Source of the DNA: Opitutia bacterium
GTDB taxonomy: Bacteria; Verrucomicrobiota; Verrucomicrobiia; Opitutales; Opitutaceae
Reading direction: 5' to 3'
DNA: 32,647 nt
Assembly: GCA_025360615.1 (NCBI GenBank)
Contig: JANYBX010000376.1
Span: 1-32,647 of the forward strand
Shown here: one piece after another, positions 27,045-29,629 of the stretch
Numbering within the stretch: position 1 is the stretch's first letter
Layout of the letters: each line of letters opens with the position of its first letter
Program-made: the position numbers and the translations under genes
Notes under the pieces: model-generated
Seen by the model: the letters and a program-made list of their open reading frames with translations, nothing else
Told to the model about the DNA's origin: nothing
Database searches by the model: none

Positions 27045-28016
27045 TTATAACTCCTCATCCCGTGCCCCCGGCAGCGCACTCGCCCGGGGATCGCGCCGCA
27101 CGCGCTCCAGCCAGTCCGCCAGCAACGTCTCCCGCGCGGTCATCGCCGCCGGCCACGGCGCTGCGACGAGATCGATCACGTGCAACCCGCCGTCGGCGCC
27201 GCGCACAAAATTCCGCGCATGCAAATCCGCCACCAAATACGGCCGCACCGTCTCGCCACCGTTCACCGCTTCCAGAAAAAATAAACGCGGGTGATCGCGA
27301 TTCGCCCGCAGAAACCGCGAGGGAATCTCGATCAACCCCGCCGGCAATAGCCGCGATACATCGTCGCCCTGCGCGAGCGTTTCCCCGATCACCTGCTTCG
27401 CGACGAGGATGCCCTCGGGCGTTACCGCCACCACCTCCGACGCCATTCCGCCGAGCGCGTGGACGAGCAAAAGTTTTTCCAGCAGCGCGCGATAATCCCC
27501 CAGCCCCGCCTCGGCGCTCAGCGTCGTCTCCTCGCCCCGGCGGAAAACAAACTCGCTCCCGATGTGCGAGCCCTCGCGCGGCAGGTAAAATTTATACACC
27601 GAGCCGTCCGCCTCCGCCGCAAACGCCCACGCTTCCACGCCACCGCCGATGCGCCGCAGCCGCGCGTTGCTTTCCTCGAGTGGGTTTTGGGTTTCCACGT
27701 CGTCTTCCGCGACCGCCGGGAAACCGTAGTCCTCCAGCGTGCGAATCGGCAGCACCGCGCGCAGTTCGCGGATCGCGTCGCCGAGCGCCGCCCAAGCGCC
27801 GCCGGTGCCTTCGAGCAAACTTACTTCGTCGGACGCGAGGAGGACGAGATCGCGGTCCGAATCTGCGCGGAGACCGCATTCGGCCGCCGCCGCGACGAGG
27901 CGAGCGAGCGCCGCCAGTCTTCGCTCGTGATCGTGTTGAAGAGCGCGTCTTTCCTCGGCGCGCGGGAGGAGACTTCCGCGGATGAGAGTGGCTTGGCCGG
28001 TGAAGTGGTCTTGCAT
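27045..28016 (-). CDS. Protein-kinase-like / polyvalent-protein-kinase-like protein of unknown function
   Basis: AWAFAAEADGSVYKFYLPRE (beta3-like) ... YLVADLHARNFVRGADGGLHVIDLV (catalytic HxxN plus ID motif). Start taken at ATG 28014-28016. Confidence 0.55.
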   Translation of the reverse strand: MQDHFTGQATLIRGSLLPRAEERRALQHDHERRLAALARLVAAAAECGLRADSDRDLVLLASDEVSLLEGTGGAWAALGDAIRELRAVLPIRTLEDYGFPAVAEDDVETQNPLEESNARLRRIGGGVEAWAFAAEADGSVYKFYLPREGSHIGSEFVFRRGEETTLSAEAGLGDYRALLEKLLLVHALGGMASEVVAVTPEGILVAKQVIGETLAQGDDVSRLLPAGLIEIPSRFLRANRDHPRLFFLEAVNGGETVRPYLVADLHARNFVRGADGGLHVIDLVAAPWPAAMTARETLLADWLERVRRDPRASALPGARDEEL

Positions 28017-28098
28017 GATTCCGCCATGAGCGAAACGTCCGCGCGCCCGCGCGGATTGGCAAAGGGTTTTTGCCGACAAGTTGTTCGCAGGCGGCAGG

Positions 28099-28306
28099 CC
28101 GGAGGGAGGAACCGCTAATCGGGATTCGCCAACGGGCGAATCCTTAAAATTCCCCTCGGGCTCATCGCCCTCGGAATTCATCATTGGTGGCGGGTGATCC
28201 CCGCCCGCGATCAGCGGGCCCAACCTTTCCAGCGCAGGCGATCAGCCGAAGCCTCCTCCCCAAGATTTCCCCTCTTGGGGAAATCCGATTAGCGGTTTCC
28301 TCCCGG
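28099..28306. repeat. Structured intergenic element bounded by imperfect terminal inverted repeats and packed with hairpins
   Basis: CCGGAGGGAGGAACCGCTAATCGG (28099-28122) versus reverse complement of 28285-28306 CCGGGAGGAAACCGCTAATCGG; internal hairpins 28122-28143, 28148-28178, 28189-28205 or 28203-28219, 28264-28285. Confidence 0.7.
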
Positions 28307-29629
28307 TTCGTTCCCCCGGGTTGCCCCCGCCCGCGTGACCAGCACTTTGTCCACGCGCCGCCGGTCCATGTCGACGACTTCAAACCGCCAGCCGTTCCAA
28401 TCAAAAAGATCCCCCGCGGTCGGGATGCGCCCGAGCTGCGTCACCACGAAACCACCCACCGTCTGAAACTCCGCCTGACCTTCGTGCGGCAACGCCACGT
28501 CGAGACTCAGCAGCGTTTTTAATTCGCCCGTCGCCAGCGTCGCGTCGATCAGCCACGAGCCGTCCTCGCGTTGTTTCGCCTCCGGCTGCACGCGGTCGCC
28601 CGGCGAGGGCAGGTCGCCCACGATCGCCTCCATCACGTCGATCAGCGTCACCAGTCCCTGCACCATGCCGAATTCATCCGTCACCACCGCGATGTGTTTT
28701 CCCGTGCGCTTGAACTGCTCGAGGAGCTGGATCGCGGTGAACGTCTCCGGCACGAGCACCGGCGGCACGAGCAGGTTTTTCAACGTCGTCGGCAGCCCGA
28801 TGGCCGAGTGCGCCCACAACGCTTTCACGGCGACCATGCCCACGATCTGGTCGCGGTTGCTCTGGAAAACCGGGAAATACGAGTGGCCGCTCGTGACGAT
28901 TTTTCGCCAGTTGGCCTCCTCGGGATCGTCGATGTTCAGGAAAACTATTTTCGGCCGCGGCGTCATCAGCCGCGTGATCGGCAGTTGATCGAGCGCGAGC
29001 ACGCCCTCGACCATTTCCTTCTCCGCGCGTTGAAACACGCCCGCGTGCAGCCCCTGCTCCACGAGAGCGCGCACCTCGTCCTCGCTCACGCTGTCCGCCG
29101 CCGTGCGCGCCTTCAGCCCGATGAGCCCGACGAGCGCCTCCGTGCAAAACTCGAAAAATTTCAGCAGTGGCGCCGCCAGCCACGCTAGCCCGCGCATCGA
29201 GCCCGCGAGCAGCGACGCCACCTTTTCCGGCTGCGCGAGGCCCACGCGTTTCGGCACCAGCTCGCCGAAGACGAGCATGAACGAGGTGAGCCCCACCGTC
29301 ACGATCACCATCGCGAGCCCGTCGGCGTGGGTCGCGATCTCCGGCCATCTCGTCGCCAGCCAAGCGCCAAGCTGTGCCGCGAGTTTCGCACCCGCCAGCA
29401 CGCCCGCAATCATGCCCGAAAGCGTGAGCCAAAACTCCACCAGCGCCAAAAACCGCGCCGGCTGCTCCGCGAGCGCGAGCGCCTTGCCCGCGCCGGCGTC
29501 GCCTTTCGCGGCCAGTTTTCTCAGTTTGGTTTTTTTCGCGGAAACGATCGCCGTCTCCGCCATGGCGAGCAGGCCGTTGGCCAGCACCAGCAGTCCCATA
29601 ATCAGCAGCGCAATCGGTAGGCTCAGCAT
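28289..29629 (-). CDS. CNNM/CorC/HlyC family transporter-like protein (DUF21, CBS pair, CorC_HlyC)
   Basis: MAETAIVSAKKTKLRKLAAKGDAGAGKALALAE, LVFGELVPKRVGLAQPEKVA, ITRLMTPRPKIVFLNIDDPEE, IAVVTDEFGMVQGLVTLIDVMEAIVGDLPS. Confidence 0.94.
   Translation of the reverse strand: MLSLPIALLIMGLLVLANGLLAMAETAIVSAKKTKLRKLAAKGDAGAGKALALAEQPARFLALVEFWLTLSGMIAGVLAGAKLAAQLGAWLATRWPEIATHADGLAMVIVTVGLTSFMLVFGELVPKRVGLAQPEKVASLLAGSMRGLAWLAAPLLKFFEFCTEALVGLIGLKARTAADSVSEDEVRALVEQGLHAGVFQRAEKEMVEGVLALDQLPITRLMTPRPKIVFLNIDDPEEANWRKIVTSGHSYFPVFQSNRDQIVGMVAVKALWAHSAIGLPTTLKNLLVPPVLVPETFTAIQLLEQFKRTGKHIAVVTDEFGMVQGLVTLIDVMEAIVGDLPSPGDRVQPEAKQREDGSWLIDATLATGELKTLLSLDVALPHEGQAEFQTVGGFVVTQLGRIPTAGDLFDWNGWRFEVVDMDRRRVDKVLVTRAGATRGNEPGGNR

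What the first reader, a model, noticed from the sequence alone, without database searches (positions are those of the whole stretch)
28017..28306. Dense multi-hairpin element with terminal inverted repeats upstream of the kinase-like gene
Ends CCGGAGGGAGGAACCGCTAATCGG / CCGGGAGGAAACCGCTAATCGG pair over ~200 nt. Inside are GGATTCGCC-aacg-GGCGAATCC and GATTTCCCC-tctt-GGGGAAATC (related hairpins with different but complementary stems), an AATTCC/GGAATT hairpin, and two overlapping hairpins described separately. It could be a non-autonomous mobile element or a structured 5' UTR for 27045-28016. I do not recognise it as a known RNA class.
Basis: partly seen in the sequence, partly recalled or inferred. 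Interest (0 to 1): 0.62.

Follow-up and report, generated by a model that had tools for sequence, protein, structure and literature searches.

The report
Replication-oriented multi-hairpin mobile DNA repeat
The hairpin cluster is one copy of an apparently undescribed family of small, gene-less jumping DNA repeats found in one family of Verrucomicrobiota; single copies almost always point the same way relative to DNA replication, which suggests they move through single-stranded DNA at the replication fork.

Summary
The hairpins are real (RNA fold z -6.7, DNA fold z -7.1), but the element is 28104-28304, not 28017-28306. It consists of two inverted ~97-nt units. Each unit has a terminal motif AACCRCTNAT and three hairpins; hairpins 2 and 3 carry TNATC loops. 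Twenty-seven units show strong covariation: 14 of 23 pairs have compensatory changes.

It is a dispersed repeat found only in the window's own family, apparently Opitutaceae (40 of 150 genomes; none in sampled genomes of other families in the phylum). The kinase-gene junction is unoccupied in 7 congeners and filled in one, so it is an inserted mobile element and not a kinase 5' UTR.

Some genomes carry inverted doublets, others single units. In a complete genome with only single units, 21 of 21 have their forward strand on the lagging-strand template. In a second genus 26 of 27 do. Gene orientation does not explain this.

Best reading: a non-autonomous, REP/REPIN-like element mobilised as single-stranded DNA by an unidentified enzyme. 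It is not a classical REP: no GTAG foot, three hairpins per unit, and no Y1/RAYT gene flanked by it in 34 loci. The enzyme and the transposition itself remain inferred.

The parts
28104..28304 (.). whole element: two inverted ~97-nt units (doublet); imperfect palindrome, so it has no intrinsic strand
   Evidence: repeat map; matched as two units by model R1 at 28110-28206(+) and 28202-28297(-); alignment with 7 relatives
28110..28122 (+). left terminal motif AACCGCTAATCGG
   Evidence: sequence; AACCGCTAATC occurs 15 times in the genome against 0 for the reversed control
28122..28143 (+). unit L hairpin 1 GGATTCGCC-AACG-GGCGAATCC
   Evidence: covarying helix 1
28148..28178 (+). unit L hairpin 2 (AATTCC...GGAATT with inner GGGC-TCATC-GCCC)
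   Evidence: helices 2-3
28189..28205 (+). unit L hairpin 3 GGCGGG-TGATC-CCCGCC; overlaps the next hairpin by 3 nt because the central spacer is lost in this copy
   Evidence: sequence; helix 4; spacer in relatives
28203..28219 (-). unit R hairpin 3 (plus strand GCCCGC-GATCA-GCGGGC)
   Evidence: helix 4
28234..28251 (-). unit R hairpin 2 (plus strand GCAGGC-GATCA-GCCGAAG)
   Evidence: helices 2-3
28264..28285 (-). unit R hairpin 1 GATTTCCCC-TCTT-GGGGAAATC
   Evidence: helix 1
28285..28297 (-). right terminal motif CCGATTAGCGGTT (AACCGCTAATCGG on the minus strand)
28101..28109 (+). GGAGGGAGG just outside the left terminal motif, within CCGGAGGGAGG; CGGAG lies within 30 nt upstream of AACC in 16 of 21 single units of G016 (2-6 of 21 in control windows). 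Possible target or recognition motif

Best explanation
The feature is one old copy of a family of non-autonomous mobile DNA repeats. The mobile unit is ~97 nt: terminal motif AACCRCTNAT followed by three hairpins, hairpins 2 and 3 with TNATC loops. Units occur alone or as inverted doublets such as this one. Shown here: dispersed copies in many genera of one family; unoccupied orthologous sites; conserved, covarying hairpins; sharp unit boundaries; and near-perfect orientation of single units, with the AACCRCT...TGATC strand being the lagging-strand template. Inferred: the hairpins fold on single-stranded DNA exposed on the lagging-strand template, a trans-acting ssDNA transposase (most simply a HUH/Y1-type enzyme) recognises them, and the unit is inserted elsewhere in fixed polarity. 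A doublet would carry a usable unit on each strand, so doublets would need no preferred orientation. The window copy entered the junction between the CNNM/CorC-family gene and the kinase-like gene before the split from G004 and is probably no longer active.
For: Dispersed copies: own genome 7 blastn and 9 model matches; 40 of 150 family genomes and 18 of 49 genera; 11 of 388 phylum genomes, all in the same family; a pattern scan of ~85,000 species genomes hit only Opitutaceae, Opitutae or Verrucomicrobia MAGs. Unoccupied sites: same gene pair without the element in G001, G002, G008, G009, G010, G011, G012; filled in G004. Structure: 14 of 23 pairs with compensatory changes, 95.7% of cells paired against 35-50% when slid, 0 of 500 shuffles. 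Discrete single unit: identity among G016 copies falls to background at AACC on the left and within 3-9 nt after hairpin 3 on the right. Replication polarity: G016 21 of 21 copies (with skew); G022 26 of 27 copies, 17 of 18 regions; genes are not the cause (82 of 163 long ORFs on the leading strand, flanking genes mixed). IS200/IS605 elements and TnpA_REP use the lagging-strand template (PMC6006769).
Against: No enzyme was found: none of 34 Y1/RAYT loci has a confident unit within ~1.5 kb (one weak 20-bit match near L229), and the three Y1 genes of the G016 genome have their own GTAG-type REPs. No transposition event, excision product or base-resolved junction was seen; the unoccupied sites are too diverged for that. 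In G101 the main doublet subfamily sits inside inverted repeats of a different MITE type, so those copies may have spread by another enzyme. Polarity could in principle come from selection instead of insertion.
Confidence: 0.66

Rival explanations
1. A classical MITE: a deletion derivative of a DDE insertion sequence, moved as double-stranded DNA through its terminal inverted repeats.
For: Doublets have inverted termini AACCGCTAAT...ATTAGCGGTT. In G101 the main subfamily is bounded by GGGAGTGTYTTCAAA repeats that also bound other short MITEs there, 88 sites against 0 in the control.
Against: Single units have only one such terminus yet are discrete and multi-copy. Internal hairpins covary. Single units are replication-oriented. 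No autonomous partner was found; the one long GGGAGTGT pair holds an IS110 apparently inserted in a MITE. No consistent direct target duplication is visible around G101 doublets (by eye).
Confidence: 0.12
2. Selected, polar chromosomal signal (comparable in logic to KOPS, Chi or BIME gyrase sites): orientation is kept by selection for a role in replication, segregation or repair.
For: Near-perfect polarity in two genera. No copy within ~0.9 Mb around the presumed terminus of G016.
Against: Low and very uneven copy number (0 to ~42 units), absent from most genomes of the family. Doublets carry both polarities. Lineage-specific subfamilies and unoccupied sites indicate spread by mobility.
Confidence: 0.1
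3. Structured 5' UTR or cis-regulatory RNA of the kinase-like gene 27045-28016.
For: The element lies directly upstream of that gene and folds strongly as RNA.
Against: Absent at the same position in 7 congeners. No gene family recurs beside copies. Orientation follows replication and not genes.
Confidence: 0.03
4. A true REP/REPIN family moved by one of the known RAYTs in these genomes acting in trans (a narrower form of the best explanation).
For: Single and inverted-doublet organisation matches REP/REPIN (PMC3116915). Every one of the 10 element-carrying genomes tested has Y1 genes.
Against: No GTAG foot, three hairpins per unit, and Y1 genes inspected in G000 and G016 are flanked by other repeats, not by this element. 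The long ~330-aa Y1 class was not found in the complete genome G016 although it has 21 units.
Confidence: 0.2

Closest known systems
REP sequences, BIMEs and REPINs with their RAYT (TnpA_REP) transposases
   Same: Short, multi-copy palindromic units between genes; single copies and inverted doublets, often heterodimers; hairpins with conserved loops; no coding capacity; lagging-strand ssDNA logic.
   Different: Unit ~97 nt with three hairpins instead of one hairpin of 20-40 nt; no GTAG/GTGG or CGTC tag; no flanked RAYT gene found; single units are discrete and strongly replication-oriented.
TnpA_Y1 subclass 2.6 and class 3 with 'atypical secondary structures' (Quentin et al. 2018, PMC6006769)
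   Same: Non-GTAG hairpin repeats present in many copies; class 3 repeats have a CnGA foot, and CGGA lies a few nt upstream of many units here.
   Different: Described there as weaker structures next to their own tnpA gene, in Bacteroidetes, Planctomycetes, Acidobacteria and Proteobacteria; no class 3-type Y1 motif was seen among the Y1 loci examined. The sequences of those repeats could not be compared here.
IS200/IS605 insertion sequences and their non-autonomous derivatives
   Same: Strand-polar insertion in the lagging-strand template; hairpins near the ends; no need for terminal inverted repeats in single units.
   Different: No autonomous copy with these ends found; three hairpins in tandem form the whole unit.
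DDE-type MITEs
   Same: Doublets have inverted termini and no coding capacity.
   Different: Single units lack a second terminus; hairpin covariation and replication polarity are not expected for a double-strand element.

Membership tests
REP / REPIN (RAYT-associated) | 5' GTAG/GTGG (or CGTC) tetranucleotide at the foot of the hairpin | tested here: not met
   Conserved start is AACCRCTNAT; no GTAG in alignment A1 consensus
REP / REPIN (RAYT-associated) | unit of 20-40 nt with a single hairpin | tested here: not met
   ~97-nt unit with three covarying hairpins; definition from PMC3733652
REP / REPIN (RAYT-associated) | inverted doublets | tested here: met
   42 unit matches forming about 20 head-out doublets in G101; window, L003, L036, L048 and others
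REP / REPIN (RAYT-associated) | RAYT gene flanked by copies of the repeat (REPtron) | tested here: not met
   34 Y1 loci from 10 genomes, one weak 20-bit match only; other repeats next to the RAYTs inspected
REP / REPIN (RAYT-associated) | multi-copy, extragenic | tested here: met
   Multi-copy. Extragenic: checked for the window copy and looked at in the G022 array, between ordinary genes; not checked for every copy
IS200/IS605-type ssDNA element (non-autonomous) | insertion polarity tied to the lagging-strand template | tested here: met
   21/21 in G016, 26/27 in G022
IS200/IS605-type ssDNA element (non-autonomous) | autonomous copy with the same ends and a Y1 transposase | tested here: not met
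   No Y1 gene with these ends in 34 loci; a partner elsewhere is not excluded
IS200/IS605-type ssDNA element (non-autonomous) | fixed short target sequence at the left end, no duplication | tested here: inconclusive
   CGGAG within 30 nt upstream in 16/21 copies against 2-6/21 in control windows, at variable distance
DDE MITE | terminal inverted repeats | tested here: inconclusive
   present in doublets, absent in single units
DDE MITE | target-site duplication | tested here: inconclusive
   no consistent duplication seen by eye in 20 G101 doublets; unoccupied sites too diverged for base-level junctions
Known structured RNA (Rfam 15) | match at gathering score | tested here: not met

The most novel reading that the evidence does not exclude
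A distinct class of single-strand-DNA mobile repeat whose three-hairpin unit is mobilised at the replication fork by an enzyme that is not a RAYT or any recognised Y1 transposase.
Probability: 0.3. Interest if true: 0.82.

Novelty: new variant of a known kind. Interest (0 to 1): 0.6.

Why it matters
If the inference holds, REP-like ssDNA mobility is wider than the GTAG/RAYT system: a unit about three times larger, with three hairpins, shows a very clean replication-strand bias and has no known enzyme. That gives a tractable case for finding a new ssDNA transposase. It also warns against reading strongly folded intergenic elements in Opitutaceae as regulatory RNAs.

Tried and rejected
(1) Cognate Y1/RAYT gene: 4 loci in the own genome and 30 from nine element-carrying genomes searched with the unit model and by end motif; only a 20-bit match near L229. 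(2) Recurrent neighbour gene: all-against-all blastp of 5199 ORFs from loci with copies; the top cluster appears, from its positions, to be the element itself translated. (3) Autonomous DDE partner in G101 through the GGGAGTGTYTTCAAA repeats: the only long pair is an IS110 apparently inside a MITE. (4) Integron-like cassette array, considered because G022 contig C2 has 8 same-strand units in 14 kb: the genes between are ordinary chromosomal genes (PNPOx, RsgA, Schlafen-type helicase, cyclase, DUF748). (5) Gene orientation as the cause of polarity: rejected. (6) Outer stem of doublets as a covarying helix: the left and right termini of one element often differ, so pairing of the termini is not shown by covariation. 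(7) A closed cloverleaf for G016 single units (CCACT...AGTGG): not the predicted minimum-energy fold. (8) Phages, plasmids, viral contigs: no match. (9) A class 3-type Y1 motif suggested by the CGGA upstream motif: not seen in the loci examined.

Full report
OBSERVATION. Folding 28103-28306 gives -107 kcal/mol as RNA (z -6.7; minus strand z -6.2) and z -7.1 as ssDNA, with 0 of 200 dinucleotide shuffles as stable. The element proper is 28104-28304. The stretch 28017-28099 is the upstream region of the kinase-like gene; part of it is conserved in congeners that lack the element. Rfam has no match.

A DISPERSED REPEAT. Blastn of the element in the window's own genome gives 7 hits: the window copy, one other full copy (L003/L007) and several halves. 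Its terminal word AACCGCTAATC occurs 15 times, against 0 for the reversed control; some of these belong to a second repeat type. Relatives in the same family carry it too, up to 12 blastn hits in G004. In G004 a copy lies at the same gene junction as the window copy (L034/L208).

ANATOMY. Comparing copies shows two inverted units of ~97 nt, each reading AACCRCTNAT - hairpin 1 (consensus ATTTCGCCAAYGGGCGAAAT) - spacer - hairpin 2 (CGGCTGATCGCC core) - spacer ending in G residues - hairpin 3 (CCGCTGATCGCGG). An alignment of 27 units supports the three hairpins: 95.7% of cells pair (35-50% when slid by 1-3 columns), 14 of 23 pairs have double compensatory changes, and the covariation score is 0.373 against 0.146 +/- 0.011 in shuffles. 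Loops of hairpins 2 and 3 are mostly TNATC. The two units of one element may differ, as in heterodimers.

MOBILE, NOT CIS-REGULATORY. The same gene pair (CNNM/CorC_HlyC-type gene, and the kinase-like gene) is found without the element in G001, G002, G008, G009, G010, G011 and G012, and with it only in the window genome and G004. A comparison of 5199 ORFs around loci with copies found no gene family recurring near them. The element is therefore most simply an insertion older than the G000/G004 split and not a conserved leader of that gene.

DISTRIBUTION. A covariance model of the unit (R1) finds it in 40 of 150 family genomes and 18 of 49 genera, and in 11 of 388 sampled phylum genomes, all of the same family. 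The large sampled searches used stricter filters, which can lose weak matches. A sequence pattern in ~85,000 species genomes hit only MAGs named Opitutaceae, Opitutae, Candidatus Didemnitutus or Verrucomicrobia. Phages, plasmids and viral contigs gave nothing.

TWO ORGANISATIONS. G101 (one contig) has 42 unit matches that form about 20 head-out doublets. G016 (one contig) has 21 units, none forming a doublet, and G022 mostly single units. In G016 the single unit is discrete: identity between copies drops to background immediately before AACC and 3-9 nt after hairpin 3, depending on the subfamily. CGGAG lies within 30 nt upstream of AACC in 16 of 21 copies, against 2-6 of 21 in control windows.

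REPLICATION POLARITY. In G016 all 13 units between 0.48 and 2.05 Mb are on the minus strand and all 8 between 2.31 and 4.28 Mb on the plus strand. GC skew sampled at 20 points is negative from about 4.4 to 2.05 Mb (through the end of the record) and positive from 2.1 to 4.3 Mb. The unit's forward strand is thus always the G-rich strand, which by the usual rule is the leading strand and has the sequence of the lagging-strand template; 21 of 21, two-sided binomial p about 1e-6. In G022, another genus, 26 of 27 units (17 of 18 regions) agree with local GC skew. Long ORFs in G016 are split 82:81 between strands and genes beside units point both ways, so gene orientation is not the cause. A few tandem neighbours may not be independent events. 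A model asymmetry that favours G-rich strands cannot be excluded for decayed copies, but strong copies in the opposite polarity would have been found.

MECHANISM. Strict polarity on the lagging-strand template together with conserved hairpins is what ssDNA transposition predicts (IS200/IS605 and TnpA_REP; PMC6006769). My reading: the unit folds when its strand is exposed as lagging-strand template, a trans-acting enzyme recognises the hairpins and terminus, and inserts it elsewhere in the same polarity. A doublet offers one such unit on either strand. Structural conservation, polarity and dispersal are shown; the ssDNA intermediate and the enzyme are inferred.

ENZYME. Y1 (PF01797) genes are present in all ten element-carrying genomes tested. 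None of 34 loci has the element's end motif on both sides of the gene, and the only model match is a weak 20-bit one near L229. The three Y1 genes of G016 and three of the four in the own genome are flanked by unrelated GTAG-type or similar palindromes. The long ~330-aa Y1 class is not in G016 at the threshold used. Flanks were ~1.5 kb, so a more distant gene is possible. In G101 the main doublet subfamily is enclosed by GGGAGTGTYTTCAAA inverted repeats of another MITE type; these copies may have been amplified by a second mechanism.

COMPARISON WITH KNOWN KINDS. It works like REP/REPIN elements (single units, inverted heterodimer doublets, hairpins), but two defining features fail when tested: the GTAG-type foot and the single 20-40-nt hairpin; the flanking RAYT was also not found. 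Quentin et al. mention 'atypical secondary structures' for Y1 subclass 2.6 and class 3 (the latter with a CnGA foot), mainly in other phyla (PMC6006769). I could not compare sequences, and no class 3-type motif was seen in the Y1 loci here. My literature searches found no description of this repeat in Opitutaceae. O. terrae is known for GTAG REPs (PMC3733652), which are different.

VERDICT. Real, inserted, mobile in origin, structurally conserved and replication-oriented. A new variant of REP/REPIN-like ssDNA repeats, with the enzyme unidentified.

Noticed in passing
L011, L012, L018/L025, L021/L026 (own genome C119, C184, C410, C539): A second repeat type of ~130 bp with the same outer word (TTTTAACCGCTAATC...GATTAGCGGTTAAAA) and one central hairpin CTTCGCC-TGATC-GGCGAAG with the same TGATC loop; folds with z -5.7. 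Probably related to the window element.
   Followed up: partly
L059, L060, L061 (own genome) and L236, L244, L252 (G016): Y1/RAYT genes flanked by GTAG-type or similar palindromic repeats (e.g. GTAGGAGCGGG..., GTAGGGCCGGCACGCCGTGCCCGGCC); a classical REP system coexists with the window element.
   Followed up: partly
window 28056-28074: TTGGCAAAGGGTTTTTGCC, a short hairpin upstream of the kinase-like gene, largely conserved in the aligned congeners with this gene pair, with or without the element; perhaps a real leader or promoter feature.
   Followed up: no
window 28289-28306: The CNNM/CorC_HlyC-type ORF (28289-29629, minus) ends inside the element: its stop codon and last codons come from the right terminal motif and its edge, so the insertion seems to have replaced the gene's end.
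   Followed up: no
G101, 88 sites, e.g. L317-L323: Short MITEs of 145-186 bp bounded by GGGAGTGTTTTCAAA inverted repeats (88 sites against 0 in the control); one holds an IS110-family transposase gene (L316).
   Followed up: partly
L092 (G022 C2:127000-146000): Eight single units in 14 kb, all on one strand, accompanied by other repeats (ATCAGCGTNNATCAGCGGTTCC, GTCGCTGCGCTCACGCGCAGCGCTAC) between ordinary chromosomal genes.
   Followed up: partly
G016, 4.28 Mb to 0.48 Mb through the end of the record: No unit in ~0.93 Mb around the presumed replication terminus (about 4 of 21 expected if even).
   Followed up: no
L230-L235, L238-L242, L058 and similar: A ~330-aa Y1 transposase class (RNHYH...YIHLNP) common in these genomes, without the window element nearby.
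   Followed up: no
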